A stretch of DNA of 25,145 nucleotides from a virus, in the IMG/VR virus record IMGVR_UViG_3300004369_000132, positions 1 to 25,145 of that record, one strand, 5' to 3'. A program made the translations under genes and the position numbers. Numbering within the stretch: the stretch's first letter is position 1; each line of letters begins with the position of its first letter. The notes under the pieces are model-generated. The model was not told the DNA's origin. It did not search any database and saw nothing but the letters and a program-made list of their open reading frames with translations. Below are positions 414-25,145 of this stretch, piece by piece.

Positions 414-427
414 GTATCAATTGATAC
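414..427. repeat. Dispersed 14-bp palindrome, copy 1 (GTATCAATTGATAC)
   Basis: Perfect inverted repeat in the 126-bp gap between the nuclease-like and HTH genes, 85 bp upstream of the HTH start codon. That is a good position for an operator controlling the HTH gene. It also lies inside a micro-ORF (387-437, 16 codons, MEDEEFGLRVSIDTAN) in the same reading frame used by the copies within genes. The rest of the gap shows no convincing promoter or gene. Confidence 0.85.
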
Positions 428-511
428 GGCGAACTGAAAATCGTCGAAAATCCCGGAATCGTCCAGAATCAGACTTCCACGGCCAGCACGGATCGTTAGA
501 GTTCAGCAACG

Positions 512-721
512 ATGACTACAAACCAAAGCAAAACATACTTGACCGTGAAGGAACTGGCGGCACAAATGCGTGTGACGCCACAGACGGTCTACGCATGGGT
601 CAGGTCAGACCGGGTTCCGTATGTGCGGCGGATCGGGAAGATTCTGTTCGACTCCCAGAAGATCGCGGAGTGGCTCGAAGGAAATTCCGATGAGCGAGGG
701 GACGACGGTCCTGCTGCTTGA
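512..721 (+). CDS. Excisionase-type helix-turn-helix DNA-binding protein
   Basis: The 69-aa protein matches the HTH_17/excisionase (MerR-like winged helix) pattern. It has YLTVKELAAQMRVTPQTVYAWVR (helix-turn-helix, about residues 9-31), then a wing-like VPYVRRIGKILFD stretch and the closing KIAEWLE helix (about 50-56). Such proteins act as small repressors, recombination directionality factors or transcription factors. No integrase is seen in the window, so an excisionase role is not implied. The perfect palindrome at 414-427 lies just upstream, which fits autoregulation. The C-terminal end (residues 60-69) overlaps the next gene by 32 nt and looks like an unstructured tail. A different frame starting at 382 spans this gene but makes an implausible protein. 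The ribosome-binding site is weak. Confidence 0.83.
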   Translation: MTTNQSKTYLTVKELAAQMRVTPQTVYAWVRSDRVPYVRRIGKILFDSQKIAEWLEGNSDERGDDGPAA

Positions 722-875
722 TTCGGACGGGGCCTGCGTGGCGACGTTTCGGATTGTGCGAGCGGAGACGATGATCGCGACGGTCAGCATAGACACGGAG
801 CTGCAATGTCATCTGATACACCAAACAGTCGGGACGGGCTCTGTGACCAGAGTTCCTACGAAACCATCCGAATAA
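690..875 (+). CDS. Small hypothetical protein
   Basis: 61 codons from ATG 690, preceded by a good AAGGAA ribosome-binding site 7-8 nt upstream. The frame is open further upstream, but that part is the shadow of the HTH gene and gives an Arg/Ser-rich nonsense sequence. From the chosen start the protein reads MSEGTTVLLLDSDGACVATF, a plausible beta-strand pattern. It overlaps the HTH gene by 32 nt and the following gene by 70 nt, which is unusually long for this genome. Either this gene or the start of the next one may therefore be wrong. I do not recognise the family. Confidence 0.5.
   Translation: MSEGTTVLLLDSDGACVATFRIVRAETMIATVSIDTELQCHLIHQTVGTGSVTRVPTKPSE
806..819. repeat. Degenerate palindrome copy (ATGTCATCTGATAC)
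   Basis: Ten of the twelve arm positions match GTATCA-NN-TGATAC. It overlaps the ATG of the gene at 806 and encodes M-S-S-D-T in the same frame as the better copies. On its own this match would not be significant. Confidence 0.3.
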
Positions 876-1081: not shown

Positions 1082-1090
1082 CGGTCAGGG
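1064..1090 (+). repeat. Short tandem repeat, unit GTCAGTGACG
   Basis: Two exact 10-bp copies (1064-1073 and 1074-1083) followed by a partial third copy (GTCAGG). The repeat spans the stop codon of the preceding gene and runs up to the ribosome-binding site of the gene at 1100, so it is a likely replication-slippage duplication. Confidence 0.75.
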
Positions 1091-1099
1091 AGAGCCGCA

Positions 1100-1465: not shown

Positions 1466-1485
1466 GACACTGCCTACGTGAGAAG

Positions 1486-1556: not shown

Positions 1557-1575
1557 ACATGACAGGGAGAGACTA

Positions 1576-1788: not shown

Positions 1789-1812
1789 GGCGTGATACCA
1801 CGGGGGCGGTGG

Positions 1813-2025
1813 ATGCCGGAATGTGAAACATGCAACGGAACAGGCCGGGTCACGGTCGTTGATAAGGGCCACCTGGACCGTGGCTCGAAGTGGCAACGGT
1901 CTTACGAATACGAATGCACGATGGAGTGCGATGATTGCGAGGGAACCGGTTACAAGGAGGTGAGCGATGCTTGTGTTGACGCGAGAGGCAGACGAGCGGG
2001 TGCGGATTACGACGCCGACCGGTGA
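1813..2025 (+). CDS. DnaJ-type zinc-finger small protein
   Basis: 70-aa product with two CxxCxGxG motifs, CETCNGTGRV (near the N-terminus) and CDDCEGTGYK (about residues 43-52). This is the arrangement of the cysteine-rich zinc domain of DnaJ, without any J-domain. ATG 1813 is preceded by GGGGGCGGTGG; a GTG at 1792 in the same frame is a less likely start. The end overlaps the csrA-like gene by 59 nt and includes its ribosome-binding site, so the last 20 or so residues may be unstructured. Small free-standing DnaJ-type zinc proteins are frequent in phages, and their role is mostly unknown. Confidence 0.6.
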   Translation: MPECETCNGTGRVTVVDKGHLDRGSKWQRSYEYECTMECDDCEGTGYKEVSDACVDARGRRAGADYDADR

Positions 2026-2161
2026 GATGTGGATCACGGTCATGAAGATGAGTCGCGGTCAGGTGCGGCTGGGGTTTAGCGGTCCGCGTGAGTTTGTGGT
2101 GGCCCGTGAGGAACTGGTCCCGGCAGACGAGCGGCCTGCACAGAAGGGGAGCGAGAGATGA
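1967..2161 (+). CDS. csrA: CsrA-like carbon storage regulator (mRNA-binding)
   Basis: The 64-aa protein opens MLVLTREADERVRI and continues with WITVMKMSRGQVRLGFSGP and EFVVAREELV, matching CsrA/RsmA along its length (beta1, then the GxQVRxG core, then VxREE). Key RNA-binding positions of E. coli CsrA are recognisable: L4, R6 and the Arg of the VxREE motif. Position 7, usually Arg, is Glu here. CsrA dimers bind GGA in loops over ribosome-binding sites and block or stabilise mRNAs. An excellent AAGGAGG site precedes ATG 1967. The stop forms an ATGA overlap with the nuclease gene. The target could be host mRNAs or the phage's own messages; the sequence does not say which. Confidence 0.93.
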   Translation: MLVLTREADERVRITTPTGEMWITVMKMSRGQVRLGFSGPREFVVAREELVPADERPAQKGSER

Positions 2162-3425: not shown

Positions 3426-3672
3426 TTCTCTGATCGAGGACTGGGTTCCCGATGACCGGGAGCACCGGGTGGTATCGAGTGAGTCGCATCGTCAGCTTCC
3501 GCGCCCAGCAGGCAACGAACTCGGAGACGGTCTACAGGCAATTCGGATGATCGACCTGTGGACCGACAAACTAAAGAAGGCACAGACGGGACCGATACCG
3601 GCGTGGCTGGTTGGTCTGGAGCAAATTGTTCGTGACGGAATGGAGTGGTACGGCGATGGCGAATCCTCATGA
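3418..3672 (+). CDS. Hypothetical protein, 84 aa
   Basis: Starts at GTG 3418, overlapping the previous stop by 8 nt, with GCGGGG as a ribosome-binding site. The N-terminal third is polar and probably disordered. The C-terminal part (DGLQAIRMIDLWTDKLKKAQ... IPAWLVGLEQIVRDGMEWYG) looks like two amphipathic helices. No family is recognised. It lies between the presumed ssDNA-binding protein and the ParB-like gene, with a 17-nt overlap into the latter. Confidence 0.6.
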   Translation: MNDSLIEDWVPDDREHRVVSSESHRQLPRPAGNELGDGLQAIRMIDLWTDKLKKAQTGPIPAWLVGLEQIVRDGMEWYGDGESS

Positions 3673-4615
3673 CATGGGGCTGACGATTATCCAGGCAATT
3701 CAGGATGCCGGCCGAGATTCGGACCCGGCATTACAGCAGGAGCACAAGGAAAACTTGCGTGCGATGGTGAGGAAGCGGGGGGAGTTCAAAGAGCCGATCG
3801 AGGTGTGTGATTGGCCGGACGGGTCGTTGATTCTGGACGGTCACACTCGGTACGAAATCTGGCTGGAAGAGCCTGAAGAGACAAAGGTGAAAAAGCCCCG
3901 GTTGCGATTGGTGCATGGGATCAAGACGGTCGAGGACGCTGAGAAGTACGCACTAGAGCAGGCACTGTTGGCACGTCGGAACCTGCGGCGTGAGTCGATG
4001 AAACACAAGATGGTCCGGCTGCTGGAACTGGGCGGGTCTGTGGCGGACGTCGTGACGCTGACCGGTTCGAGCAGGGCGACGGTCTACCGTGAGGTCGCGT
4101 TCTTGAAGCTGCCGCAGGACGTGCGGGACGACATCGAGTCAGGTGCGATCTACATTCCGCGTGGCGAGCTTCCGGGCCTGTTGCGACTCGGGACGTGGGC
4201 AGCGGCGGTCGAGAACTGCCGCGCTGGCCGGGCGTGGAACGATGACGGAAAGGAACCAGAGAGCCCGGCAGAGGAAGACGTATCATTTGATACGACCGAA
4301 GAGGATGAAGTGGTCGAGCCAGTGAAGACGCCAGGTCTGTCGAAGAACGCACAGGAGATTCAGCGGAAGTGCCGGACGATGATCAAGAACGTCATTCCGG
4401 TGCTGCAGGAGACGTCGATTGAGGTGGCTCGGATGATTCACTCGGGTACGGTCCCGAAGCGGGGCGGGTTCCCTGTTGAGCTGGTGAGTTCCGCGACTGC
4501 ACAGATCATGGCAGCGTTCCATACGTGGGAGCCTGTCGGAGAGTGCCCGGACTGCGAGACGGGCTGTTCGACGTGCAATGGTCGGGGGTGGAAGCGACGG
4601 GGGTCGGGAAGATGA
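3656..4615 (+). CDS. ParB-like nuclease-domain/HTH protein with C-terminal zinc finger
   Basis: 319 aa from ATG 3656 (the longer frame from 3611 adds a shadow of the preceding gene). The N-terminal part has the ParB/sulfiredoxin-type core LILDGHTRYEIW (58-69) and an ARRNLRRES segment (106-114) resembling the ParB N-x-x-RR box. An HTH-like region follows (about 127-150, GSVADVVTLTGSSRATVYRE). An acidic linker (200-222) contains a perfect copy of the 14-bp palindrome. A helical domain follows, then a DnaJ-like knuckle CPDCETGCSTCNGRG (297-311). ParB-like proteins bind palindromic sites and can spread along DNA by CTP-dependent clamping; phage members may act in partition, transcription or DNA modification. 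It shares an ATGA overlap with the helicase, suggesting coupled expression. Its binding site is not proven. Confidence 0.75.
   Translation: MANPHDMGLTIIQAIQDAGRDSDPALQQEHKENLRAMVRKRGEFKEPIEVCDWPDGSLILDGHTRYEIWLEEPEETKVKKPRLRLVHGIKTVEDAEKYALEQALLARRNLRRESMKHKMVRLLELGGSVADVVTLTGSSRATVYREVAFLKLPQDVRDDIESGAIYIPRGELPGLLRLGTWAAAVENCRAGRAWNDDGKEPESPAEEDVSFDTTEEDEVVEPVKTPGLSKNAQEIQRKCRTMIKNVIPVLQETSIEVARMIHSGTVPKRGGFPVELVSSATAQIMAAFHTWEPVGECPDCETGCSTCNGRGWKRRGSGR
4280..4293. repeat. Dispersed 14-bp palindrome, copy 2 (GTATCATTTGATAC)
   Basis: Perfect arms, extended by one further C-G pair (4279/4294). It lies in the acidic linker of the ParB-like gene, where it encodes V209-S-F-D-T213. It is identical over 14 bases to the copies at 20195 and 24379. 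Confidence 0.93.
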
Positions 4616-6138
4616 TCCAGGTCGGCGACTTCATTCTGGACGAGATGCAGGAGCACGCTGTGAATGCGGTGCGTGATGAGTTGCGTGCCGGGAAAAAGCG
4701 TGTGCTGCTGGTGGGGCCAACCGGCTTCGGGAAGACAGTTCTGGCCCTGGCCATCGAGTCGTTGTGTTTAGAGAAGGGGACACGGGTCGGGTTCATCACG
4801 AGCGGTCGGACCTTGATCCTGCAGAAAGCGGCGTCGTCGGAACGGGCGGGGCTGAACTTCTCTGTCCTGATGAACCAGTCGGGGTATCCGGCCTTCGACT
4901 GCATGACGGACTTTGCGATTGTATCAAAAGATACACTGAAGCATCGCGAGAAGAGGATGCTGTTCTCGCATCCGAACGTGTGGATTGTGGACGAAGCGGA
5001 CGTTGCGATCTCGCCGCGCTGGCTGGAGATGCTGGAGAACGCACAGGTCGTGCTGGGGCTGACGGCGACTCCCGTCACTGGGAAGGATCAGGGGCTGGGG
5101 TTCTTCTATGAGGCGATTGTTGAGGCAGCCAACTACTCACAGTTGATCGAGAGCGGGCGACTGGTGGATGTGCCGGAAGGAAAGATGTTCAGTCCGTATC
5201 GGCCCTACCTGCTGGGCGTGTCAAGCAGTTCCGGGGACTACAACAGCGCTTCGCTGACCGAGCGGATGGATAGTCCGCAGATCGTGGGAGACGTGGTGAA
5301 CGAGTGGGAGAAGCACGGGGAGGATCGGAAGACGGTGGCTTTTTGCTGTAACAAGGCTCACGCGGCGCATGTGGCGGATTGCTTCAACGCGAGGGGAATT
5401 CGAGCAGCGTACATTGTGGACGATACGAGCACGGATGAACGGGCAGACATTTTCGAGGAGACGTTGAACGGCACGAATCAGGTGATCGTAAACTGCCAGG
5501 TCCTGACGCGAGGCTGGGACATGCCGGCAATCAGTTGTGGAATCCTGATCAATCCCACGAAGCGAGCGAGGAAGTACCTGCAGTGCGTGGGGCGGATCCT
5601 GCGGTCTCATCCGGGCAAGACGGACGCGGTGTTGATTGATCATTCGGCGAACGTCTGGCGGCACGGCTGGCCGACTGAGGACCGTATCTGGACGCTGGCG
5701 ACGGACGTGTGCCAGGAAGACCTGCAGGATGAAGCGGAGAACAAGAAAGCCCCGGAAAACTTCTGCACGCAGTGTGGAGCGTTGTGGCGGAACGGTCCCG
5801 ACTGTCCAAATCCGGCGTGCAATGCGACCCGGAAGTCAGTGGTGAAGTCACAGCCTGCGGTGGACGTAGACGGGACGCTGGTGGCTGTGACGCGGAAGGG
5901 GATCAAGGAGCGGAAACCCGCTGAGTCCGATCCGCAGAAGTGCTGGACTGGGTTACTGTTTGCGTTTGGGCAGACGAATAAGACGTACGCGCAGGCGACC
6001 GCTGCATTCAAGGGGCGAATGGGCAACTGGCCTGACGCGGCGGGGGTTCATCCGCTGGCGAAGTGGCATGAGCGGAATATGAAAATCCGGGTGTTGTGGC
6101 CTGGGTATGGACCGAAGAAAGCAAGGGAGAAAGTATGA
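4612..6138 (+). CDS. Superfamily 2 DNA helicase (DEAD/DEAH-type) with zinc ribbon
   Basis: 508 aa from ATG 4612, which overlaps the ParB-like stop (ATGA); the frame upstream of this start is a shadow. SF2 motifs appear in order: GPTGFGKT (motif I, 35-42), VDEAD (II, 126-130), TATP (III, 151-154), VLTRGWDMP (V, 297-305) and QCVGRILR (VI, 324-331). A four-Cys zinc ribbon follows (C385, C388, C398, C403). The protein resembles the UvsW/RAD25-like ATP-dependent helicases found in phages, which remodel replication forks or recombination intermediates. It is the only clear motor for DNA replication in the window; no polymerase or primase is visible here. A near-palindrome copy lies at codons 104-108. 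Confidence 0.92.
   Translation: MIQVGDFILDEMQEHAVNAVRDELRAGKKRVLLVGPTGFGKTVLALAIESLCLEKGTRVGFITSGRTLILQKAASSERAGLNFSVLMNQSGYPAFDCMTDFAIVSKDTLKHREKRMLFSHPNVWIVDEADVAISPRWLEMLENAQVVLGLTATPVTGKDQGLGFFYEAIVEAANYSQLIESGRLVDVPEGKMFSPYRPYLLGVSSSSGDYNSASLTERMDSPQIVGDVVNEWEKHGEDRKTVAFCCNKAHAAHVADCFNARGIRAAYIVDDTSTDERADIFEETLNGTNQVIVNCQVLTRGWDMPAISCGILINPTKRARKYLQCVGRILRSHPGKTDAVLIDHSANVWRHGWPTEDRIWTLATDVCQEDLQDEAENKKAPENFCTQCGALWRNGPDCPNPACNATRKSVVKSQPAVDVDGTLVAVTRKGIKERKPAESDPQKCWTGLLFAFGQTNKTYAQATAAFKGRMGNWPDAAGVHPLAKWHERNMKIRVLWPGYGPKKAREKV
4921..4934. repeat. Near-palindrome copy (GTATCAAAAGATAC)
   Basis: One mismatch to the arms (A for T at the ninth base). Inside the helicase gene it encodes V-S-K-D-T in the same frame as the other copies. 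Confidence 0.6.
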
Positions 6139-6789: not shown

Positions 6790-6793
6790 CGCT

Positions 6794-6810: not shown

Positions 6811-7373
6811 CTGAATACACCGCGCACAATGAACCGCGAGACGTCTGGCTGGACCGGCTACGGAAAGAATCCCGCCTGGACGCCATGCTGGATGACTATC
6901 ACCGGCTGTGCCATCAGATCGGCTTGAGTGCCGCCGCTTTGCAAATCCGGGAAGCGTACTGGGATCCCCCGCCACCTCCCGTATCAGATGATACATTTCT
7001 GGAGGAAGCGACGACGATTGACGTTCTGGCCGAGATGCGGTCGAACGTGCAGTGGGCGTTGAACAACATCACAGATCAGAGGGCAGCCGCGCCGAATGTG
7101 ACGGCCCGAGCCTACCAGCAGATGGACGTGACCAAACTCACGGAACTGCTGTTGAAGGTCACGGAGCGGATCGAGAAGAGTACGGCTCCCACGGATGACC
7201 GGCTGGAAGAGGACTACCGGAAGCAGATGGGGTTCCTGACCAAGCTCCAGCCGATCGTAGAGCGGGACGTGCCGGCACAATGTGACGACATGATCCGTCT
7301 GCACTGGGAGATTCTGGAACGTCGGTTGATCCGGGCGGGCTATCAGGTGCAGCAACTGGAGATGGTCCAGTGA
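6807..7373 (+). CDS. Candidate terminase small subunit
   Basis: 188-aa helical protein directly before, and overlapping by 4 nt (GTGA), the large terminase gene, which is the usual place for the small terminase. The N-terminal half has LDAMLDDYHRLCHQIGLSAA, then a Pro-rich linker (PPPPPVSDDT, about 54-63) holding a palindrome copy. The C-terminal half is amphipathic helix (TKLTELLLKVTERIEKS... MIRLHWEILERRLIRAGYQV). I do not recognise a classic small-terminase HTH, so the assignment rests on position and helical character. It could instead be an unrelated head-operon protein. Confidence 0.5.
   Translation: MTEYTAHNEPRDVWLDRLRKESRLDAMLDDYHRLCHQIGLSAAALQIREAYWDPPPPPVSDDTFLEEATTIDVLAEMRSNVQWALNNITDQRAAAPNVTARAYQQMDVTKLTELLLKVTERIEKSTAPTDDRLEEDYRKQMGFLTKLQPIVERDVPAQCDDMIRLHWEILERRLIRAGYQVQQLEMVQ
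6981..6994. repeat. Dispersed 14-bp palindrome, copy 3 (GTATCAGATGATAC)
   Basis: Both six-base arms are perfect; the central bases are GA. It lies in the Pro-rich linker of the candidate small terminase, encoding V-S-D-D-T in the common frame. Confidence 0.88.
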
Positions 7374-9238
7374 GCATCTTCGATGTGAACCAGCAGGGCC
7401 AGTTGCCGATTGGCCCAACAGACTGGTTTTACCGCAACCTGGTCCCGAAAGAGCATTACGCGAACCTTGAGTTTCGCCGTCAGGTGCTGGAGATGTGCCG
7501 TGGCAGGCCGGACCATCAGGCGGACGTGTTCCGGATTTGTAGCCGGGACATTCTGTTCTATCTCAACGTGTTCGGATGGACCCTCAATCCGCGTCTCAAG
7601 CCACCATTGCGCCCGTTCATCACGTACGAGTATCAGGACCGGGCGATCCTGAAGATCCAGGAGAACCTCGGGAAGAAGGACATTGCGGTCCCAAAGTCGC
7701 GGGACATGGGGGCCAGTTGGGTTTGCCTGCTGTCGCTCGAACATGCGTGGCACTTCGACGAGATGTTGCAGTTCCTTCTGACGTCAGAGAAGGAGGAGCT
7801 GGTTGATGGGTCGTCAGAGAAGGCGCTGTTCAAGAAGCTGGATTTCTGGTGGAAGCATCTGCCAGCGTGGCTGCTGCCAGCGATGCACCGCAAGAAAATG
7901 CACGCGGGGAACAGGGATACGGCGTCAGCGTTCGACGGTGAGGCGACGGTCGAGCACATGGGTACTGGCGACCGGCGAACGGCGATCCTGCTGGATGAAG
8001 CGTCGAAGATGCGGTACGCGCACACGATCCGGACGGCAACACGGGATGTGTCGGACTGCCGAATGTTCAACTCGACACCGAACGGTCGGCAGGGCGTCGG
8101 CCAGGCGTTTTATGAGCAGGCGAAGAACCCGAACGGCGTGCGAATCTTCATGCACTGGAGTGAGCATCCGGAGAAACGGAAGGGTCTGTACCGGCTGTCG
8201 GCAGACGGGGAGCGGACGCCACTGGATGCGGAGACGTACGACTGGAAAGAAGACTACGACTTCGAGCAGTTGACGTTTCCGCCGAACCGGAAGCCACGGT
8301 CGATCTGGTACGACGAGCAGTGTGAGCGGGCACATCACAACCCGGTCGAGATTGCCCAGGAACTGGACATCGACTTCGTTGGTTCAACGCAGCGGCTGGT
8401 GGACCCGGAAACGATCGTGTTCGCGAGGCGGGAGTTGATTAAAGCGCCGATGCACACAGGGATGATATCGGTCGATCCGCACACGCTGGAGCTGGAGTTC
8501 ATTGAGCGTCGTCTGGGGCCGGTGAAACTGTGGTGTCCGCTGGGCGGGGATAACCGACCACCTCCCGGTCATTACTCGGAGGGCGTGGATATCAGCTCCG
8601 GCCGCAACACGGCACATACGTCGGAGTCAGCGATCAGTATGTGGGACCGTGCGACAAAGTCCCAGGTGCTGGAGTTCGCGAGCACGACGACGAAGCCAGA
8701 AGAGTGGGCGGTCATGGCGATCGCGTTGTGCAAGTGGTTCCATGATGCGTTCATGGTGCCGGAGTCGAACGGTCCGATCAACGGTCAGTTCATGGACGAA
8801 CTGGAGCGGCAGAGCTACTGGAACGTCCGCCGGCAACGCTACTCGAATGTCGGGTACGCCAAGATGAAGCAATCACTTGGGTATCACAACTCTGACGGCG
8901 GTCAGCAGATTCTGGGGCGGATGATCGCGGACATGATCCGGCACGAGTGTCAGTTGCGATCCGAGAAGGTGCTGGGGCAGATGCTGGAGTACGAATACCG
9001 GGCGGGCGGGAATCTGGTTCATGCGGGATCTCTGGCTGGCAGCACAGCCGGTCAGGGCAAACTGCACGGTGACGTCGCGATAGCCGCCGCCCTGGGATAT
9101 CTGGGCTGCATTGAGCGTCCGGCGAAGGAAGAAGTAGCAGATGATACACCGGTCATCCTGCCCGGCAGCATGGCGTACCGTCTGGAACGCCAGGACGCGG
9201 AAGCCGCCCTGTCGGGCGAGAACGCATTTCACTGGTAG
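7370..9238 (+). CDS. terL: Terminase large subunit (DNA-packaging ATPase and nuclease)
   Basis: 622 aa from GTG 7370, overlapping the upstream stop (GTGA). The ATPase domain shows a Walker A variant PKSRDMGAS (108-116), Walker B TAILLDEAS (204-212, D209/E210) and the coupling motif NSTPNG (234-239). The nuclease domain shows VDIS (D407), VPESNG (463-468, E465) and HGDVAIAAAL (566-575, D568), the acidic triad of the RNase H-like headful/cos nuclease. The protein powers DNA translocation into the prohead at the portal and cuts the concatemer. The gene is complete, with a near-palindrome copy in its C-terminal tail (EEVADDTP). It is followed by a short leader and the portal gene. This is the firmest evidence for a tailed phage. 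Confidence 0.96.
   Translation: MSIFDVNQQGQLPIGPTDWFYRNLVPKEHYANLEFRRQVLEMCRGRPDHQADVFRICSRDILFYLNVFGWTLNPRLKPPLRPFITYEYQDRAILKIQENLGKKDIAVPKSRDMGASWVCLLSLEHAWHFDEMLQFLLTSEKEELVDGSSEKALFKKLDFWWKHLPAWLLPAMHRKKMHAGNRDTASAFDGEATVEHMGTGDRRTAILLDEASKMRYAHTIRTATRDVSDCRMFNSTPNGRQGVGQAFYEQAKNPNGVRIFMHWSEHPEKRKGLYRLSADGERTPLDAETYDWKEDYDFEQLTFPPNRKPRSIWYDEQCERAHHNPVEIAQELDIDFVGSTQRLVDPETIVFARRELIKAPMHTGMISVDPHTLELEFIERRLGPVKLWCPLGGDNRPPPGHYSEGVDISSGRNTAHTSESAISMWDRATKSQVLEFASTTTKPEEWAVMAIALCKWFHDAFMVPESNGPINGQFMDELERQSYWNVRRQRYSNVGYAKMKQSLGYHNSDGGQQILGRMIADMIRHECQLRSEKVLGQMLEYEYRAGGNLVHAGSLAGSTAGQGKLHGDVAIAAALGYLGCIERPAKEEVADDTPVILPGSMAYRLERQDAEAALSGENAFHW
9134..9147. repeat. Degenerate palindrome copy (GTAGCAGATGATAC)
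   Basis: The right arm is perfect and the left arm has one mismatch (GTAGCA). It sits in the C-terminal tail of the large terminase, encoding V-A-D-D-T in the common frame. Confidence 0.5.
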
Positions 9239-11674: not shown

Positions 11675-12787
11675 ATGCTGATTCGAGACTTGACAGCCGA
11701 CACCAGGAAGTTTGCGCAAGCACCCGTTGCTGAGGCGGGGATGGCGGTTGCCGGTCCTGTGCCTTCTGAGGAGTTGCGGGAACTGGCGCGGTCGACTGGC
11801 AAGGACATGGGACTGGAGCCTCGCACGGCACCGAAGCCAGAGCGAGACGATCCGGTTGATGAAGTCGACGAAGAAGTATCAAATGATACCGACGACGCGG
11901 ACGACGACACAGACACAATCGACTACTTCCAGCCCAAGGCGGACGAGGCTGATGATGAGGCTGATGATGAGCGTGCTCCATCAGCTACTGGGCAGAACGA
12001 TGAGTTACTCCGTTTTGCGGTTGAGTTGGGCATGGACGAAAGCGTGGCGAAATCCATGCCGGATGACCATGTGCGTGCTGTCCTGAAAATGAAGCTGGGG
12101 AACCTCCAGTTCCAGCAGCCACAGAACATGCCATCGGCAGCGATGCCGCAACCAACTTCACAGGTGCCATTCCCACCTGTAGCGGACCCATTGGACGAAC
12201 TGGCGGCTGCCACAGAGGCAGCACTGCGGGCGGCTGAGGATGAGGGTCACGGCGAAGAAGTGACAGGTCTGGTGAAGGCTCTCCGCGCGGAGGCGTCAGC
12301 CAGGGTTGCCGCACAGGCCGAGGAACTGAAACGGATGCAGGCTCACATCATGGCGATGGAGCAATCGCAGACGTATCAGCAGTCGGCGGCGATGGAGCAG
12401 AGGACGACCTCTGTGAATTCGTTGATTGATACGCATCTGGATAACCCGGAACGGTACGGGACTGCGGCACAGTGGACCCAAGAGCAGGCTGCGAGAGCGC
12501 AGCACATCGACGGTTTGTTGTACGCCTGCGAGCAGGCAAAGATCACAGTCACGCCCACCGTGTTGCGGGAACTGGATGCACTGGCGTTCGGCAGCCCACA
12601 GGCTTCACCGGAGTCGAAGGTGCAGGCGTCCAAGACGCGGGCACTGAAGAGTCAGTCCAAACGACGCATGGGTGTGTCAGCCAAACCGGCGGCACCCCGT
12701 GAGACGAAGTGGTCTGGCGATCCGATGGATAACCCGAAGCTGCATGACATTGCACGGAAATTTCAACAAGAAGCCGGTCTCCGTTGA
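11675..12787 (+). CDS. Scaffolding-like protein
   Basis: 370 aa, immediately upstream of the major capsid gene. It is strongly acidic in the first third (for example DPVDEVDEEVSNDTDDADDD, 59-78). A long Ala/Glu-rich helical, probably coiled-coil region follows (about 171-240), and the C-terminus is basic (residues 315-345 rich in K/R). This acidic-helical-basic pattern and position fit a scaffold that guides prohead assembly and binds coat protein through its basic tail. Scaffolds diverge fast, so sequence recognition is not expected. A perfect palindrome copy encodes V68-S-N-D-T72 in the acidic segment. ATG 11675 follows GAGGATAGG. Confidence 0.72.
   Translation: MLIRDLTADTRKFAQAPVAEAGMAVAGPVPSEELRELARSTGKDMGLEPRTAPKPERDDPVDEVDEEVSNDTDDADDDTDTIDYFQPKADEADDEADDERAPSATGQNDELLRFAVELGMDESVAKSMPDDHVRAVLKMKLGNLQFQQPQNMPSAAMPQPTSQVPFPPVADPLDELAAATEAALRAAEDEGHGEEVTGLVKALRAEASARVAAQAEELKRMQAHIMAMEQSQTYQQSAAMEQRTTSVNSLIDTHLDNPERYGTAAQWTQEQAARAQHIDGLLYACEQAKITVTPTVLRELDALAFGSPQASPESKVQASKTRALKSQSKRRMGVSAKPAAPRETKWSGDPMDNPKLHDIARKFQQEAGLR
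11876..11889. repeat. Dispersed 14-bp palindrome, copy 4 (GTATCAAATGATAC)
   Basis: Perfect arms, central AA (the reverse complement of the TT form). It lies in the acidic disordered part of the scaffold-like gene and encodes V-S-N-D-T in the common frame. Confidence 0.92.
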
Positions 12788-14687: not shown

Positions 14688-14710
14688 TGCTGAGTGATGG
14701 ATGAGAACCA

Positions 14711-14744
14711 ACGGGGGAGTATCAAATGATACTCCCCCGTTTTT
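14711..14744 (+). terminator. Strong intrinsic terminator built on the palindrome
   Basis: ACGGGGGAGTATCA (14711-14724), AA, TGATACTCCCCCGT (14727-14740): a perfect 14-bp stem with minimal loop, followed by TTTT (the run is T14740-T14744). The upper stem is a perfect GTATCA-NN-TGATAC palindrome and the lower stem is G/C. No T-run follows on the other strand, so it would work in the + direction. It separates head genes from neck and tail genes. Confidence 0.92.
14719..14732. repeat. Dispersed 14-bp palindrome, copy 5 (GTATCAAATGATAC)
   Basis: Perfect copy forming the top of the terminator stem at 14711-14740. It is the only copy whose symmetry extends well past the 14-bp core. Confidence 0.92.
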
Positions 14745-14763
14745 CCAGAGGGGGAGGGAACTG

Positions 14764-15573
14764 ATGGCAGAATTGGATCCAGAGGAGCGGCGGGCGGTTG
14801 AGATGATGCTGGGACGAGCTGTCCCGGCAGAGGTGGAAGAAATCATTCTGGCGTTTCACGACATGATGGCGGTCCGGTCAGGACCAGAGGTATTGGAAGA
14901 CCCGTTTCTGGCCTGTTGCCTGTTGATGGCCGGGCTGCGGCGGGAACACATGAAGGTCGTGAACAAGCACAGCGACACGCCGATCGGCACGAAGCTGATG
15001 TGGGTCGAAGGTCAGCGGGAAATATGGGGCACGTTCCAGGGCGTGTGCGAGAAGCCGCGTGGGACGTACTGTCGGATGTGGATGCTGGACGAGTCGGAAT
15101 TCGAGCGGTCGGTCCCGGACGAGAAGTTGACGGCAATGGTCGAGCGACCGAAGTTGCCGGACGGGCTTCGCGATCTGCCGTTTGAGCCGGGCACAGAAGT
15201 AGTGGCTGACGGGAAGCGAGGGCTCTTTCGCAGCGTCTCACGCGAGGGGCGGCTGCGAGTAGAGATTGAGGAGTCTGGCATCGTCGGGCTACAGACGTTC
15301 GATCTGGACGAGGTACTGGCGTACGTGGGGAATGAGGACACGGTCCGGCATGAGTCCACAAAGGGCTGGGAGTCGGTGAAGGTCGGGTATCCAGTGACAG
15401 TGTCGGACGTCGCGGGTGAGTGGGGTACAGAGGGGGAGTTGCTGGGCGGGACATTTCAGGGCATCGGTGCAGAGGGGCAGTTGGAGATTTATCTGATCGA
15501 GCAGGACCAGGACATCCTGATCGATGCGGAGGAGGTTATCCCCGACCGGGAACTCTTTGCTGAGGCGACTTGA
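14764..15573 (+). CDS. Hypothetical structural-module protein, 269 aa
   Basis: ATG 14764 follows GGGGGAGGG with good spacing. The frame is open back to ATG 14701, but that extension runs through the terminator hairpin and has a weak ribosome-binding site, so the shorter start is chosen. The N-terminal half is helical (PEERRAVEMMLGRAVPAEVE...). The second half has two beta-rich segments that resemble each other in outline, about 140-190 (PGTEVVADGKRGLFRSVS) and 200-255 (GYPVTVSDVAGEWGTEGELL), possibly two small SH3/KOW-like barrels. No family is recognised. It is the first gene after the terminator and directly upstream of the adaptor (TGATG junction). Confidence 0.68.
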   Translation: MAELDPEERRAVEMMLGRAVPAEVEEIILAFHDMMAVRSGPEVLEDPFLACCLLMAGLRREHMKVVNKHSDTPIGTKLMWVEGQREIWGTFQGVCEKPRGTYCRMWMLDESEFERSVPDEKLTAMVERPKLPDGLRDLPFEPGTEVVADGKRGLFRSVSREGRLRVEIEESGIVGLQTFDLDEVLAYVGNEDTVRHESTKGWESVKVGYPVTVSDVAGEWGTEGELLGGTFQGIGAEGQLEIYLIEQDQDILIDAEEVIPDRELFAEAT

Positions 15574-19151: not shown

Positions 19152-19791
19152 GATGGGCATGATTCTCCCGAAATCCGTGTTTATTCACATCCCGAAAACA
19201 GGCGGGACTTCGGTTCGGATGTTGTGCGAAATGATGGGGATCTGTCTGGGCGAGACTGGCTCAGCGACGCAGACGGATCTGGAAAATAAACATGCTCCGT
19301 ATCGGGTGATGCGGAGCGAGGTGGGTTCGCGGGGAGCGTTTGCGACAGTCAGGCCGACGCTGGAGTGGTATCGGTCGCAATGGATGCACAAGACGAGGAC
19401 GGGGGACGGAGGGGGAATTGTTGGTGAAGAGTATTACCGGCCTGACTTTGATGAGTGGGTCAGGCATGTGACAGTGGCGTTGCCTGGTCATTATGGCTGG
19501 TATCTGGGTTCGATGCTGGATGGTTCGGATGCGGTACTCATTGAAACGTGTCGGCTGCTCAATGGATTGAGGGGGGCGTTGCATCATCTGAATGAAGCAT
19601 TTACATGGCCCAGGTTAGATTCGTCCTGGCGGATGAATCGGGCTGGTGAGTCGGAAAGAGAACAATCAGCCTGGACGCCAGAACTCATGTTGAGAGTGGT
19701 GGCGTCAGAAGGAAAACAGAGGTATCCGGATGAGTTTCTGGATAAGTATGGTAAGAATTTTGTCCGTCGCGAGAGCGGCATCACAGTGTGA
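19144..19791 (+). CDS. Carbohydrate sulfotransferase-like protein (PAPS-dependent)
   Basis: 215 aa. The N-terminus carries VFIHIPKTGGTSVRMLCEMM (12-31), the classic 5'-phosphosulfate-binding loop of the Sulfotransfer_2/heparan-sulfate-type family (IPKTGGTS). A second segment FATVRPTLEWYRSQWMHK (66-83) matches the 3'-phosphate motif (Arg70...Ser78). KHAPYRV (49-55) is a candidate acceptor-side histidine region. It would move sulfate from PAPS onto a sugar hydroxyl. ATG 19144 overlaps the glycosyltransferase stop by 8 nt; ATG 19153 and 19159 are alternative starts. PAPS must come from the host, since no APS kinase is seen. Paired with the GT it suggests synthesis of a sulfated glycan. Confidence 0.82.
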   Translation: MCEMGMILPKSVFIHIPKTGGTSVRMLCEMMGICLGETGSATQTDLENKHAPYRVMRSEVGSRGAFATVRPTLEWYRSQWMHKTRTGDGGGIVGEEYYRPDFDEWVRHVTVALPGHYGWYLGSMLDGSDAVLIETCRLLNGLRGALHHLNEAFTWPRLDSSWRMNRAGESEREQSAWTPELMLRVVASEGKQRYPDEFLDKYGKNFVRRESGITV

Positions 19792-19802
19792 GGAGAATTA
19801 CG

Positions 19803-20189
19803 ATGGGACAGTTGGATCAAGATGCCCGCCGGGCAACGGATGAGCTGGATATCCGCGATCCGGGCGATGCGAAAACGATTACGTCGCGCGGTGTCGTGGG
19901 ATCACGGTGCGTGTTGACGAGCGCGGCCGCAGAAACACGGATTCTCGGTGCCCCGCAGCAGGAGAATGAAACCCTGCTGTTGACGGCGAAGGATCAGGCA
20001 GCGGGTGACATTACGCTGACGATCACTCCGACCGGCCTGTATGACTCCGGCTACCAGTCCGGGGAGTTGGTGACACTGACGACGGTTGTCTTCAGTGCAG
20101 ACGGGGAATCCCTGCTGCTGCGAGCGATCAGCGTCGGCGGAACGCTTAAGTGGGTGGTTGAGTCTGCGATGGGCGCGGCACTGTCCTGA
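19803..20189 (+). CDS. Small beta-rich virion-region protein, 128 aa
   Basis: ATG 19803 follows GAGGAGAATT, a good site; an in-frame GTG at 19788 sits in the previous stop region. The N-terminal 30 residues are polar and acidic (MGQLDQDARRATDELDIRDP). The rest is beta-rich with Thr/Leu alternation (TLLLTAKDQAAGDITLTITP, VTLTTVVFSADGESLLLRAI). It fits a capsid/tail decoration or neck protein. Family not recognised. A perfect palindrome copy follows it at 20195-20208. Confidence 0.65.
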   Translation: MGQLDQDARRATDELDIRDPGDAKTITSRGVVGSRCVLTSAAAETRILGAPQQENETLLLTAKDQAAGDITLTITPTGLYDSGYQSGELVTLTTVVFSADGESLLLRAISVGGTLKWVVESAMGAALS

Positions 20190-20194
20190 TAAAA

Positions 20195-20208
20195 GTATCA
20201 TTTGATAC
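20195..20208. repeat. Dispersed 14-bp palindrome, copy 6 (GTATCATTTGATAC)
   Basis: Perfect copy in the 31-bp gap between genes ending at 20189 and starting at 20221, 12 bp upstream of the ATG and next to the ribosome-binding site. A bound protein here could affect transcription or the start of the next gene. No T-run or G/C extension is present, so it is not a terminator. Confidence 0.93.
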
Positions 20209-20220
20209 CGGGGTGAGCCG

Positions 20221-20877
20221 ATGGCTGAGCGGGTTCTGACATGCGCAGTGAGTGCCGACGACGGGTATGAAGCCAACGGTGGCGGCATGACCTTGACGGA
20301 CATAGTGTTGCAGCTGGGAATGCCCAACAACAATGAGGTGGCCTGCGCGTTCCGTTTCCCGTTGCCGTCAACTGGCTGGCTGGTGGACAAGACGTTGACG
20401 GATGTGTCGTTGCGGTTGACGTTTACTGGTGGGAATCAGGGCAGTTACACGGCGAAGTTGTATCTGGAGAACGGCGCTACACCTGGCGTGTTGACGACGG
20501 GATCTGGTGACATCTCTGGCCGAACGAAGACAACGGCGTTTGTGTGGTTCGGATCGGGTGTCGTGGGTTCACCGACCCCGGATGAGGTGAAATCCTATAA
20601 CATGGATGGGACCGGACGGTCGATCCTGCTGGCATTGGAGGAGGTGATCACATCTCGGACGGCAGAGTTGATGGATGCGATTGTGGTGATCGTCATCTAT
20701 ACGGCGTCGACCGACAATGGTTATCGCAGCATTTACGCATACGACAAAGACGTAACGCCAGCAACAAGCGTGGCTCCGGGTCCACCACGACTGGTGCTGA
20801 CGTACAGTGAGGACGTGATCGTTGATGACCGGAACGTGAGGTTTCACATGACCGATAACGCGGACGTGGTAGTGTAA
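20221..20877 (+). CDS. Virion-surface protein with beta-sandwich/CBM-like fold, 218 aa
   Basis: ATG 20221 follows GGGGTGAG. The chain is beta-rich, starting AERVLTCAVSADDGYEANGG, with FPLPSTGWLVDKTLTDVSLR and YTAKLYLENGATPGVLTTGS segments typical of jelly-roll carbohydrate-binding or DNRLRE-type domains. It continues with a long strand-rich tail ending in FHMTDNADVVV. Such domains in phage tail regions usually bind glycans or mediate trimerisation. No enzymatic motif is visible. Placement between the sulfotransferase and hub genes would fit a fibre or spike. This is inference from composition and position. Confidence 0.62.
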   Translation: MAERVLTCAVSADDGYEANGGGMTLTDIVLQLGMPNNNEVACAFRFPLPSTGWLVDKTLTDVSLRLTFTGGNQGSYTAKLYLENGATPGVLTTGSGDISGRTKTTAFVWFGSGVVGSPTPDEVKSYNMDGTGRSILLALEEVITSRTAELMDAIVVIVIYTASTDNGYRSIYAYDKDVTPATSVAPGPPRLVLTYSEDVIVDDRNVRFHMTDNADVVV

Positions 20878-21191
20878 TGGCCTTCGAAACAACCAACGGT
20901 AGTTTTGGCGAGACGATCCGCCGGACGATTCAGGATCAGTCGGGTAACGTGATTGATATCTCGGGTGCCACGACCAAAGTGTTTTATTTGCGGGCTCCCA
21001 GCGGGACGGTCACGACCGCAACCGCATCATTTGAGACAGACGGCACAGACGGTGTGCTGACCTACGTGATCGCGACTGGCGTGATCAACGAGACGGGACC
21101 GTGGCAACTGGAGACTCGCGTTGTGACGCCGTCGATTGACAAGACGTCGAAGCCGGAGGACTGGGCTCAGGTCCACGAGAGGTTTTTCTGA
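20877..21191 (+). CDS. BppU-like/Ig-like small tail protein, 104 aa
   Basis: Starts at ATG 20877 in a TAATG overlap. The pattern FGETIRRTIQDQSGNVIDIS followed by TTKVFYLRAPSGTVTTATAS, then GVLTYVIATGVINETGPWQL, resembles the N-terminal domain of the BppU/baseplate-upper-type family (a membrane-distal beta-sandwich in phage adsorption organelles). The protein is nearly all beta. It lies just before the large hub/nozzle-like gene, with a 1-nt overlap. It may connect the nozzle to fibres. The resemblance is moderate. Confidence 0.6.
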   Translation: MAFETTNGSFGETIRRTIQDQSGNVIDISGATTKVFYLRAPSGTVTTATASFETDGTDGVLTYVIATGVINETGPWQLETRVVTPSIDKTSKPEDWAQVHERFF

Positions 21192-23869
21192 TGCAACCTT
21201 ATTACGTTGAAGCCGGGTTTCCAGTGAGTGGTCTGGCCGAGGTTGCGCCGTTCAGTGATCAGGAAGCCGGCACGTCCCCGGACATGCTGAATCTGCTGCC
21301 GTTTGATGCGAAGGGTCGATTGCGTGGTGGACGCCGCCCCGGTTTGACGAAGTACAGCGAGTATCAGATTAACGGGTTGCTGCCGGTCCAGTGCATGGAG
21401 AGCATCAGCGCGACGTATGTGAAGCCGGTTCTGGGTGACGGCACCGTGGCGATGAACGGGAACGACGCGTTGACGACAGGCATGGCCTTTCGCGCGAATG
21501 ACGGGTCCGGCACGATTACCAATGTGGAATCGGCGGAGATGGGTTCGCATACGCATCTGGGTTCGACGTTCGGGCCAGACGGGAAGTGTTACGTCGTGGC
21601 TTACACGACGACCGCCGTCAAGCTCCTGCGAATCCAGACGGACGCGACGGTCGACTACACGGCCAGCATCTTTACGGCCGGGAGTTCCGTGAGTTCCAAG
21701 CAAATGCTGGGTCTGTGTGCGGACGAGGACACGGTCTATCTGTGGTACAAGGACATTGCCGATATCGGTGAAGGGATCATGCGGCTGAATCAGTCGGATG
21801 GCTCGAACCGGGACAGTGTAACGGATGGGGTCTGGATCCGGGCTGAGGACGACGCGACGAACATTGAACGAGTGTTCGGCGGCGTGTCGGGCTGCGGCTG
21901 GGATGTGATCGGCACGGTGACGCACTCGATGATGGTGACGTACCTGGGTTACCTGGTCGTGGTGGGTGCTCCCGACCTGTCCACGACTCCCTCATCGAAC
22001 CAGTTGGTTGTGTATGTGATCAACACGAAGACCGGGATCCCGGACGCGGTCAGCGATCTGGGGATTGACGGGACCAGTTCATCGAATGACCGGGGCATCT
22101 TCATTGACCTGGCGATCGGTCTCGATGGGTTCATCTACGTGCTCTACAAGGATGAGGATCAGGCCTCATCGACAAGCACGGTCACCTACATCCGGAAGAT
22201 CGCCATTGATGGGACAGCGATCTGGGAGATCGAGTACACAGGCAACCCGACGACGGCTGGTGCGTACTCACTGTGCTGGGTGCCGAAACGAAATGTGCTG
22301 GCGGTGTGCGGGAACAATGTGTTCGGGACGGGGGGGCATCTGCTCCTGATTGATCCCGACGCAAAAGGGTTTATCGAGTACCAGGACCTGAGTGTCAGTC
22401 GCAACATGGTGCGGTGTGACGCTGACGGGAGTTTCTACTTCTGGAAAAACGGGTCATCGAACACAATCGCCAAGTTCGATACCGACTTCGTGCAGGTCTG
22501 GGACGTCAGCGATCCGAATACGGATCAGGCACGCGGCAGCCTGAATGCGTACTACAACGCGGGGAATGACGAGACTGGCAGTACGCGCTATCAGGAGTTG
22601 CTGGCGATTTCGGGCGGGACGCTGGTCAAGGTGGAAACGTCAGGCAACACACCCGTGACAGGCGGGGCGTCGTTTTCGGCATCAGCCCGAGTGATTTACG
22701 GGGCACCGTTTGGCGTGCTGTGTTTCTTCGCGGATGGTGAGGACCATTTTTACTACGATGCGGTGCAGTCGGCCGTGCTGGACTGGTCGGACAATCTGGT
22801 CTACGGTGCGTTGCCGGCAGACCTGAACGGGGGCTTCAAATATCTCGAAGTGTGGAACGATCGCGTGCTGGCGTTCGGCCTGACGAACGACCCGAACAAC
22901 TACTACTTCAGTGCCAAGGGTGATCCGTTTGACTGGAAGCTCCAGCAGGGTGTGGCAGGGGCAGCGATTAACGGGACATTGAGTCCCGCCAAGCGGTTTC
23001 CCGAGAAACTGGTTGGAGCGATTCCGTACAATAACGACATCCTGATCATGTGCGGTGATCACTCGCTGTATCAGATGACACTCGACCCGGCCGTGGATGC
23101 CCAGTTGGATTTGATCACGGACAAGATCGGTATGGCACCGGGCAGGGCGTGGTGTAAAGACGGTATGGGGGGCGTGTATTTCTTCGGGAACAGCGGAGGG
23201 ATGTATAAGCTGAGCCTGGATTCACCACCGGTGCGGATCAGTAATCGAACGATCGATGACCGGTTCACCGATGTGGAAATCGCAGAGGTCGACATCCAGA
23301 TGCAGTGGGACCAGAGCCGGCAGGGTGTCTGGGTGATGTTTCATCCTCATTCGAACGCAGCGGCGACACAGTATTTCTTTGACATCCGGACAGAAGGGTT
23401 CTTTCCGGTGAAGTTTGCGAATCCGGCCTACAATCCTGTGTGTTCGACCATTCTGGACCGTGACAATCCGAAGGACGCCAAGGTGATGTTCGGCAATTCC
23501 GATGGGTATGTGCGGTACCTGGACGACGCAGCGAAGGATGACGACGGGACACTGTTTGAGCGATACTTTGTGCTGGGGCCGTGGACCGCGCAGAGTGGTT
23601 CTCTCATGAATGTCATGGTCGAGGAGATGGACGTTGCTGTGGGGAACGGCTCGTTTCTCAAGGCCGAAGTGCTGGTGGGTCCGGATGCCGAGACGGTGAT
23701 CACGGATCGTCGCGTGGCGTATGCAACAAAATGCGAGGAGCGGCGGCGGAATGGTTCGATTCCAAGGATTTCAGGACGGTCCGTGGCGTTAAAGCTCAGC
23801 ACGCAGGGCGACCAGAACGCGGCGTTTGAAGGCGTGCGAATGAAGATGCGTGACCAGAGGAGCTTGTAA
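21191..23869 (+). CDS. Tail nozzle/hub-like protein (beta-propeller-rich)
   Basis: 892 aa in a TGATG overlap. The N-terminus has SPDMLNLLPFDAKGRLRGGR followed by RPGLTKYSEYQ, a pattern typical of podovirus tail nozzle/hub (T7 gp12, P22 gp10-like) proteins, where residues 25-50 form the start of the propeller. The rest is long, strand-rich and rich in repeated D-G-x-x-Y/F-x-V units (for example IGLDGFIYVLYKDEDQASS and DGSFYFWKNGSSNTIAKFD), consistent with a propeller. It would form the tip of a short tail that docks to the adaptor and contacts the host. The C-terminal part (RRVAYATKCEERRRNGSIPR) carries a final helical and basic segment. A near-palindrome copy lies at 23068. Confidence 0.75.
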   Translation: MQPYYVEAGFPVSGLAEVAPFSDQEAGTSPDMLNLLPFDAKGRLRGGRRPGLTKYSEYQINGLLPVQCMESISATYVKPVLGDGTVAMNGNDALTTGMAFRANDGSGTITNVESAEMGSHTHLGSTFGPDGKCYVVAYTTTAVKLLRIQTDATVDYTASIFTAGSSVSSKQMLGLCADEDTVYLWYKDIADIGEGIMRLNQSDGSNRDSVTDGVWIRAEDDATNIERVFGGVSGCGWDVIGTVTHSMMVTYLGYLVVVGAPDLSTTPSSNQLVVYVINTKTGIPDAVSDLGIDGTSSSNDRGIFIDLAIGLDGFIYVLYKDEDQASSTSTVTYIRKIAIDGTAIWEIEYTGNPTTAGAYSLCWVPKRNVLAVCGNNVFGTGGHLLLIDPDAKGFIEYQDLSVSRNMVRCDADGSFYFWKNGSSNTIAKFDTDFVQVWDVSDPNTDQARGSLNAYYNAGNDETGSTRYQELLAISGGTLVKVETSGNTPVTGGASFSASARVIYGAPFGVLCFFADGEDHFYYDAVQSAVLDWSDNLVYGALPADLNGGFKYLEVWNDRVLAFGLTNDPNNYYFSAKGDPFDWKLQQGVAGAAINGTLSPAKRFPEKLVGAIPYNNDILIMCGDHSLYQMTLDPAVDAQLDLITDKIGMAPGRAWCKDGMGGVYFFGNSGGMYKLSLDSPPVRISNRTIDDRFTDVEIAEVDIQMQWDQSRQGVWVMFHPHSNAAATQYFFDIRTEGFFPVKFANPAYNPVCSTILDRDNPKDAKVMFGNSDGYVRYLDDAAKDDDGTLFERYFVLGPWTAQSGSLMNVMVEEMDVAVGNGSFLKAEVLVGPDAETVITDRRVAYATKCEERRRNGSIPRISGRSVALKLSTQGDQNAAFEGVRMKMRDQRSL
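23068..23081. repeat. Near-palindrome copy (GTATCAGATGACAC)
   Basis: One mismatch in the right arm (C for T). It lies in the nozzle/hub-like gene but in a different reading frame from all other copies (Y-Q-M-T), so it may be a chance match. Confidence 0.4.
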
Positions 23870-24144
23870 TGCCACACAGCCTACAGATGCCGCAGATGCC
23901 GCAGATGCCGGCGATGCCTCAGATGCAGCAGAAGCGACCGTTCGGGCCGGTGATGCGAGGCGGGTTGCTGCCGGGTAAGAAGCCGAACCGGTTGCGACGG
24001 TCAGCCCCACCGTTGGATCATGACGACGAGGACGTGATTAAGCCGAATCGTCTGGCGCGTCCGCGAGCGGATATCGATAAACTGAAGACCGATTACAAGA
24101 ATCTGATGGACCGGTATCGAGGAGTCCTGCATGGCCGTCAATGA
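23869..24144 (+). CDS. Small Met/Gln/Pro-rich protein, 91 aa
   Basis: ATG 23869 is in a TAATG overlap after GAGGAGC. The N-terminus is a low-complexity repeat (QMPQMPQMPAMPQMQQK) encoded by 9-bp tandem units. A basic stretch (RGGLLPGKKPNRLRR), an acidic stretch (DHDDEDV) and a C-terminal helix (DIDKLKTDYKNLMDRYRG) follow. It may be a virion or internal protein. No family is recognised. It overlaps the next gene by 14 nt. Confidence 0.65.
   Translation: MPHSLQMPQMPQMPAMPQMQQKRPFGPVMRGGLLPGKKPNRLRRSAPPLDHDDEDVIKPNRLARPRADIDKLKTDYKNLMDRYRGVLHGRQ
23884..23928 (+). repeat. 9-bp tandem repeat (CAGATGCCG)
   Basis: Three exact CAGATGCCG units (23884-23910), then GCGATGCCT and CAGATGCAG variants. 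They code for the Gln-Met-Pro repeat of the 23869 gene. Confidence 0.9.
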
Positions 24145-24346
24145 CAGGAAGTTCGCCGAGAAGAGTACGAATCTGGCTCCGTTGACGCGGACGGCGCAAT
24201 CGTTCTCGCCGGACACGTTTGCGACACCGGACTTCGCACAGGGTCGAGTTGTGCTGGCACAGTTCAAGTTCCCCGGCTCACAGCGGTTGTCGGAGTTCGG
24301 GAAGTCCTACACGAAGAATGGCATTCCGGATGAGGAAGCGCAATGA
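24131..24346 (+). CDS. Small virion-region protein, 71 aa
   Basis: ATG 24131 follows GAGGAGTCC. The sequence MAVNDRKFAEKSTNLAPLTR and FSPDTFATPDFAQGRVVLAQ is polar, with a short C-terminal helix. It ends ATGA-overlapped with the next gene. Function unknown. Confidence 0.62.
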   Translation: MAVNDRKFAEKSTNLAPLTRTAQSFSPDTFATPDFAQGRVVLAQFKFPGSQRLSEFGKSYTKNGIPDEEAQ

Positions 24347-25145
24347 GAGGCTTCAACGGTTCACTGGCTCAGCCAGGCGTATCATTTGATACCGGCTCCG
24401 TCCAGCAGACAGGCGGGCGGCTGTACGGGGTACCTGGTCAGGTCCGTCAGTCGTATTCCGGTCGTCTGTCGTCTCCCGTGGGGACGTCTGGCGGTGGGGT
24501 TGTGGATCGGACGGTTCCGGCAGCGGTTGCGAGCGTGTCACCCGAGGAGCGTACGGCGGCCTCACTGGCCCGCAGCCCGGCGACGATTGGAATTCCGACC
24601 ACAGGGTTCAGTCAGCAGCAACTGCCCGGAGGACGGCTGGCAGACCGCCTGGGCGGTGAGCCACTGCCGCGTCAATTGTTCGGTGATCGTGGCGAGTCAG
24701 CGGATGATCAGGACTACTCGACGTTGCTGCGGGTTTCGCGGTCCCAGTACGACCGAAACCGGGCGGCAGCGTTGTCGGCGTTCGACAGTCAGACGGGCGA
24801 AAACCGGACGGCGTACGAGGCACAGGTTGCGGCAGCGAGGGCAGCGCATGAGCAGCGGTACGCACCGCTGGTGCAGTCGGCTCGGACAGCGTACGACACA
24901 GAGAACCAGCTCGCGCAGGAAGCGTTTGCGCGCCGAGCGAACACTGCAGAGGGGACGTACAATTACATCCGAAGTCGACCGTCGAACACGACCTTTACGA
25001 CAAACTACATACGGGAAGCCGAGCGTGAGTACCAGGCGACACGCGGGGGATATCGGCCGCCCCCGTTCAAATCACCGGCACCAGCGTTCGAGGCGCTACC
25101 ATTCCCTGGTGGGGGCGAATTCAGTTACCCGGAGTTCACGGCACC
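24343..25145 (+). CDS. Partial structural protein with long helical segment, runs off the window
   Basis: ATG 24343 forms an ATGA overlap with the previous stop, after GAGGAAGC. The frame stays open to the last base (267 full codons). The first part is Gly/Ser/Val-rich and probably disordered (residues 1-85). A charged, Ala-rich helical segment follows (about 130-200, with SRSQYDRNRAAALSAFDSQT and YEAQVAAARAAHEQRYAPLV), likely coiled coil. The end is Pro-rich (RPPPFKSPAPAFEALPFPGG). It may be a tail fibre, needle or ejection protein. A perfect palindrome copy encodes V13-S-F-D-T17 near the N-terminus. The end of the gene lies outside the window. Confidence 0.75.
   Translation, partial: MRGFNGSLAQPGVSFDTGSVQQTGGRLYGVPGQVRQSYSGRLSSPVGTSGGGVVDRTVPAAVASVSPEERTAASLARSPATIGIPTTGFSQQQLPGGRLADRLGGEPLPRQLFGDRGESADDQDYSTLLRVSRSQYDRNRAAALSAFDSQTGENRTAYEAQVAAARAAHEQRYAPLVQSARTAYDTENQLAQEAFARRANTAEGTYNYIRSRPSNTTFTTNYIREAEREYQATRGGYRPPPFKSPAPAFEALPFPGGGEFSYPEFTA
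24379..24392. repeat. Dispersed 14-bp palindrome, copy 7 (GTATCATTTGATAC)
   Basis: Perfect copy near the start of the partial last gene, in a Gly/Ser-rich disordered stretch, encoding V-S-F-D-T in the common frame. It is identical over 14 bases to copies 2 and 6. Confidence 0.93.

What the first reader, a model, noticed from the sequence alone, without database searches (positions are those of the whole stretch)
414..24392. Genome-wide 14-bp palindrome GTATCA-NN-TGATAC, seven perfect copies
Seen directly: perfect arms at 414, 4280, 6981, 11876, 14719, 20195 and 24379, plus near copies at 4921 and 23068 and weaker ones at 806, 9134 and 17223. Twelve fixed bases should occur about 0.0015 times in 25 kb if bases were random, so seven is far beyond chance. 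Copies lie in gaps, in disordered protein linkers and in a terminator, roughly every 2-6 kb. This resembles dispersed operator or 'stoperator' systems known in some mycobacteriophages, ParB/parS-like partition sites, or a site for a host protein. It may be the main regulatory or organising signal of this phage.
Basis: partly seen in the sequence, partly recalled or inferred. Interest (0 to 1): 0.88.

Follow-up and report, generated by a model that had tools for sequence, protein, structure and literature searches.

The report
Evenly spaced ParB-type palindromes in phage
A virus of bacteria carries seven exact copies of a 14-letter mirror-image DNA word spread evenly over its genome, most likely landing sites for its own ParB-like protein, a relative of the proteins that sort bacterial chromosomes; who binds the sites has still to be shown.

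Summary
GTATCA-NN-TGATAC occurs seven times in 25,145 bases, at the stated coordinates; shuffled sequence gives none. Copies are spaced more evenly than random points (P about 0.0007). They sit in gene gaps (3 of 7, though gaps are 2.5% of the window) or, in frame as Val-Ser-x-Asp-Thr, in linkers and one N-terminus. They use codons GTA TCA, which encode only 5.5% of valines and 15.5% of serines here, so DNA, not protein, is conserved. The nearest relative (75% identical capsid protein) and all other relatives lack the site. 580 bacterial genomes hold 46 places; the two six-copy genomes hold one repeated element.

Best explanation: dispersed binding sites of the phage's own ParB-like protein (3656-4615). 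The half-site GTATCA differs from the parS half-site GTTTCA at one base, and by alignment the protein keeps the Arg and Gly that mark parS-reading ParBs. Closest precedents: scattered SopB sites of prophage N15 and KorB operators of plasmid RK2. Against: ParB-like proteins of related phages come without such sites, no ParA gene was found, and structure models failed. Binder and function remain inferred.

The parts
414..427 (.). perfect site GTATCAATTGATAC, gene gap 85 bp before the HTH_17 gene
4280..4293 (.). perfect site, inside the parB-like gene, linker VSFDT
6981..6994 (.). perfect site, linker VSDDT of the gene before the terminase
11876..11889 (.). perfect site, acidic linker VSNDT of the gene before the capsid gene (scaffold-like position)
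14719..14732 (.). perfect site forming the top of an intrinsic terminator (GGGGGA-site-TCCCCC then T run)
   Evidence: folding energy -26.5 kcal/mol, z -7.3
20195..20208 (.). perfect site in the short gap between genes 19788-20189 and 20221-20877
24379..24392 (.). perfect site near the start of the gene at 24343 (VSFDT)
4921..4934 (.). one-mismatch copy in the helicase gene (VSKDT, codons GTA TCA AAA GAT ACA)
9134..9147 (.). one-mismatch copy in the terminase C-terminal tail (VADDT)
23068..23081 (.). one-mismatch copy in gene 21191-23869, other reading frame
3656..4615 (+). ParB-like protein (ParB fold, HTH, C-terminal cysteine knuckle): proposed binder
   Evidence: phrog_1033 E 1.6e-9; PF17762 HTH_ParB E 0.015, below cut-off; best PDB matches Spo0J and Noc, weak
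512..721 (+). 69-aa HTH_17/excisionase-like protein: second candidate binder
   Evidence: PF12728 E 2.5e-12; TIGR01764

Best explanation
The palindromes are DNA-level binding sites of a symmetric protein dimer, most likely the phage's own ParB-like protein (3656-4615). Shown: the sites, their excess over chance, even spacing, selection at the DNA level and restriction to this phage among the relatives examined. Inferred: each dimer docks on the two GTATCA half-sites through its HTH, closes as a nucleotide-dependent clamp and slides off, so that sites every 3-5 kb coat the genome. This would act as a distributed centromere and/or long-range silencer, as SopB does on prophage N15 or KorB on plasmid RK2.
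For: Seven copies against none in shuffles; even spacing, P 0.0007; three of seven in the 2.5% non-coding DNA, P 0.0005; rare codons GTA and TCA in every in-frame perfect copy; aligned linkers of the relative G001 lack the word. Link to ParB: the arm GTATCA is one base from the parS arm GTTTCA (0.46% of six-mers are that close) with the same 2-bp centre; the site keeps G1 and A6, the bases that separate parS from NBS (PMC7383237), and the protein by alignment keeps R173 (as R140) and, with a two-residue insertion, G201 (as G170). The four N15 SopB sites also have exact arms round a variable 2-bp centre (AC, TC, AT, AC). A ParB-like protein and the sites are both missing in G001.
Against: Related phages such as G005 carry a ParB-like protein with the same cysteine knuckle beside a helicase but no dispersed palindromes, so the association is not general; their HTH region is very different. 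Across all 14 positions the site has four mismatches to canonical parS. Several parS-contacting residues differ (Q162, K171, N178, R204 become V, S, R, P by alignment). No ParA-type ATPase was found in the window or in G001. Both structure models are too poor to use. The HTH_17 protein, or a repressor encoded outside the record, could be the binder.
Confidence: 0.5

Rival explanations
1. The sites are dispersed operators of a phage repressor, either the 69-aa HTH_17 protein (512-721) or one encoded outside the record. It would block promoters or elongation at many places, like stoperators or other dispersed operators.
For: One site lies 85 bp upstream of the HTH_17 gene; that protein has no homologue in the six other phage records compared; the record may be a fragment, so other regulators may be missing.
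Against: HTH_17/excisionase proteins are usually associated with direct or differently spaced sites (own knowledge). Four of seven sites are inside genes, and the consensus scan puts no promoter-like site near them. Described stoperators are asymmetric and oriented (PMC3029335).
Confidence: 0.3
2. The sites are bound by a host or plasmid protein, for example a host ParB variant, which the phage hijacks for segregation or silencing.
For: Hijacking of a foreign parABS system is known for the element SGI1 (PMC10954446, title and abstract only).
Against: 294, 145 and 141 genomes of three phyla hold 34, 9 and 3 places; the two six-copy genomes hold copies of one repeated element. The host is unknown, so this is limited evidence.
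Confidence: 0.12
3. The signal acts as RNA: each copy forms a small hairpin that is processed or terminates transcription.
For: The copy at 14719 is the upper stem of a strong terminator.
Against: The other six fold weakly (-4.9 to -8.5 kcal/mol, z -1.4 to -2.5), have a 5-6 pair stem, no compensatory changes between copies and no T run. Identical arms in all copies point to sequence recognition.
Confidence: 0.04
4. The repeats reflect a conserved protein motif Val-Ser-x-Asp-Thr or a small mobile element.
For: The four perfect copies inside genes all read V-S-x-D-T.
Against: Three copies are non-coding; codons are the rare GTA and TCA each time; of the two frames without a stop codon one gives V-S-x-D-T anyway; nothing is shared outside the 14 bp.
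Confidence: 0.02

Closest known systems
SopB/IR sites of linear plasmid-prophage N15
   Same: Phage genome; four inverted repeats scattered over the genome; exact arms with a variable 2-bp centre; read by a ParB-family protein (PMC7205306, PMC5016525).
   Different: N15 arms are GTGCGACC; it has a SopA partner; four sites; the ParB-like protein here has a C-terminal cysteine knuckle and no ParA was found.
KorB/OB operators of plasmid RK2
   Same: ParB-family clamp, 16-bp operators scattered over a plasmid, long-range silencing by sliding (PMC11790492, PMC5016525).
   Different: No KorA homologue identified; sites here do not sit at recognisable promoters.
Chromosomal ParB/parS (and Noc/NBS)
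   Same: 6+2+6 palindrome, one base per arm from parS, RxxG specificity residues by alignment (PMC7383237).
   Different: Sites are dispersed evenly, centre is mostly A/T instead of CG, several DNA-contact residues differ, no ParA found.
Mycobacteriophage stoperators
   Same: Many copies dispersed over a phage genome.
   Different: Stoperators are asymmetric 13-mers, oriented and mostly intergenic (PMC3029335).

Membership tests
ParB/parS | canonical TGTTTCACGTGAAACA site | tested here: not met
   four of the 14 core positions differ; the closest canonical-like word in the window is a single GTTTCCCGAGAAAC at 22996
ParB/parS | ParB fold plus HTH in the protein | tested here: met
   by sequence only: phrog_1033 over residues 26-165; weak PF17762; aligned with Spo0J
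ParB/parS | Arg173 and Gly201 specificity pair | tested here: met
   alignment only, G201 needs a two-residue insertion (PMC7383237)
ParB/parS | ParA ATPase partner | tested here: inconclusive
   none in the window or G001, but the record may be a fragment
ParB/parS | CTP-dependent clamp | not testable with these tools
   needs biochemistry; Box I reads DGHTR where canonical ParBs have GERR
N15-type scattered SopB sites | scattered identical palindromes with variable 2-bp centre on a phage genome | tested here: met
   N15 oligonucleotides
N15-type scattered SopB sites | SopA-type partner gene and plasmid-prophage lifestyle | tested here: inconclusive
   no ParA-type ATPase in the record, lifestyle unknown
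KorB/OB | operators upstream of target promoters | tested here: inconclusive
   sigma-70 scan found no excess and none near the sites; host promoter type unknown
Stoperator system | asymmetric oriented site, mostly intergenic | tested here: not met
   perfect palindrome, four of seven intragenic

The most novel reading that the evidence does not exclude
A phage has seeded its genome, including its own coding linkers, with clamp-loading sites about every 4 kb for a non-canonical ParB, so that the whole viral genome is coated without a ParA. This would be a ParB-based genome-packing or genome-silencing system rather than a segregation system, with a parS-like specificity not found in the literature searched here.
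Probability: 0.2. Interest if true: 0.75.

Novelty: new variant of a known kind. Interest (0 to 1): 0.52.

Why it matters
Phages carry many ParB-fold proteins without known DNA targets (survey PMC12704722). Here a candidate target can be read directly from the genome, with exact arms and a testable base-to-residue prediction. If right, it gives a phage ParB with a new specificity, a natural orthogonal ParB-site pair, and a case of a regulatory word written into protein linkers.

Tried and rejected
No similar phage in INPHARED (megablast; tblastn of ParB). Viral scans with the ParB-like protein, the helicase and a two-protein ParB alignment found no relatives. The capsid protein found only G001. 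Searching the six other phage records for any over-represented gapped palindrome found none like this; only G004 showed GC-rich five-base arms. A planctomycete ParB-like protein in an integrated element (L043) shares the cysteine knuckle but its surroundings hold no dispersed palindrome. Two AlphaFold models of the ParB-like protein had mean pLDDT 44, so no fold search was made. No Rfam family and no tRNA in the window.

Full report
What is there. Dinucleotide shuffles give none; three further copies have one mismatch against 0.015 expected. The conserved part is exactly 14 bp: flanks share nothing. The two centre bases are A/T in six of seven copies. No ten-base word occurs five or more times without being part of this site family.

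Placement. Spacings run from 2.7 to 5.5 kb; seven random points are spaced this evenly in about 0.07% of trials by smallest spacing and 0.26% by coefficient of variation. If the three one-mismatch copies are included, evenness weakens (P 0.07 and 0.03). Three copies are in gene gaps although gaps make up 2.5% of the window (P 0.0005). One of these forms the upper stem of an intrinsic terminator. The other four are in genes, all in the frame that reads Val-Ser-x-Asp-Thr: in a linker of the ParB-like protein, in the gene before the terminase, in the gene before the capsid gene and near the start of the gene at 24343. Of three frames one would put a TGA stop in the gene, so only two were possible. 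Codons GTA (5.5% of valines) and TCA (15.5% of serines) are used each time. In the nearest relative, G001, with 65% identical terminase and 75% identical capsid protein, the aligned linkers are gapped or unrelated and the word is absent. The word is therefore kept as DNA, in places that tolerate it.

Who shares it. None of six related phage records has the word even with one mismatch, and a search for any repeated gapped palindrome in them found no comparable family. Whole-genome samples from the phyla of three bacterial genomes that hold a relative of the terminase gave 34 places in 294 genomes, 9 in 145 and 3 in 141. The two genomes with six copies have the word inside copies of one repeated element with near-identical flanks, in the eight copies read. 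The site is thus not a common host signal in those groups. The host of this phage is unknown.

Candidate binders. Two clear HTH proteins are encoded in the window: a 69-aa HTH_17/excisionase-like protein (512-721) and a ParB-like protein (3656-4615; phrog_1033; HTH_ParB below cut-off). Genes around the latter encode an exonuclease and a helicase. Canonical parS is TGTTTCACGTGAAACA (PMC7383237), that is GTTTCA-CG-TGAAAC inside. The phage arm differs in one base, a closeness that 0.46% of six-mers reach; counting the centre, four of 14 positions differ. In ParB, R173 contacts G1, and the residue at 201 decides between A6 (G201, parS) and C6 (R201, NBS) (PMC7383237). The phage site keeps G1 and A6. 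Aligned to a planctomycete ParB and through it to Caulobacter ParB, the phage protein has R140 at R173 and, after a two-residue insertion, G170 at G201; it has lysine at position 184, called permissive for new specificity in that paper, and different residues at Q162, K171, N178 and R204 (numbering counted by hand from these alignments). This pattern fits a ParB that reads a parS-like word with a changed third base and a relaxed centre. It is an inference from sequence.

What speaks against it. G005 and its relatives encode a ParB-like protein with the same C-terminal cysteine knuckle, in G005 next to a helicase as in the window, yet show no dispersed palindrome. Their HTH region is unlike that of the window protein, so a change of target in this lineage is possible, but co-occurrence across phages cannot be claimed. 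No ParA-type ATPase was found in the window or in G001. The AlphaFold models were too poor to compare.

Precedents. N15 SopB reads four inverted repeats whose arms are identical and whose two centre bases vary (AC, TC, AT, AC in the oligonucleotides of PMC7205306); a review describes such sites, citing N15 and RK2, as scattered across the genome (PMC5016525). KorB loads at its operator and slides as a CTP-dependent clamp to silence promoters up to 1.5 kb away (PMC11790492). Mycobacteriophage stoperators are asymmetric, oriented and mostly intergenic (PMC3029335). The present sites resemble the first two in design and differ from the third.

Verdict. The palindrome is a real, strongly selected DNA signal of this phage. 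Function as a distributed centromere or silencer is inferred by analogy. The window is a possibly partial viral record, so count and spacing over the whole genome are unknown.

Noticed in passing
window 1967-2161: A 64-aa CsrA-family protein (PF02599, E 2.6e-12) is encoded by the phage; its relative G001 also has one.
   Followed up: no
window 14705-14750: Very strong intrinsic terminator (-26.5 kcal/mol) after gene 13926-14687, built around one of the palindromes.
   Followed up: partly
window 15570-17948: The 792-aa product matches relatives in several offset registers, which suggests about three internal repeats of roughly 250 residues.
   Followed up: no
L034:4170-5105 (G005) and L043: A family of phage and element ParB-like proteins with a C-terminal cysteine knuckle of unknown role, in G005 beside a helicase gene.
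   Followed up: partly
G098 and G132 (genomes of the phylum of G009): Six copies each of the same 14-mer; those read lie in a repeated element with conserved flanks, so a coincidence.
   Followed up: yes
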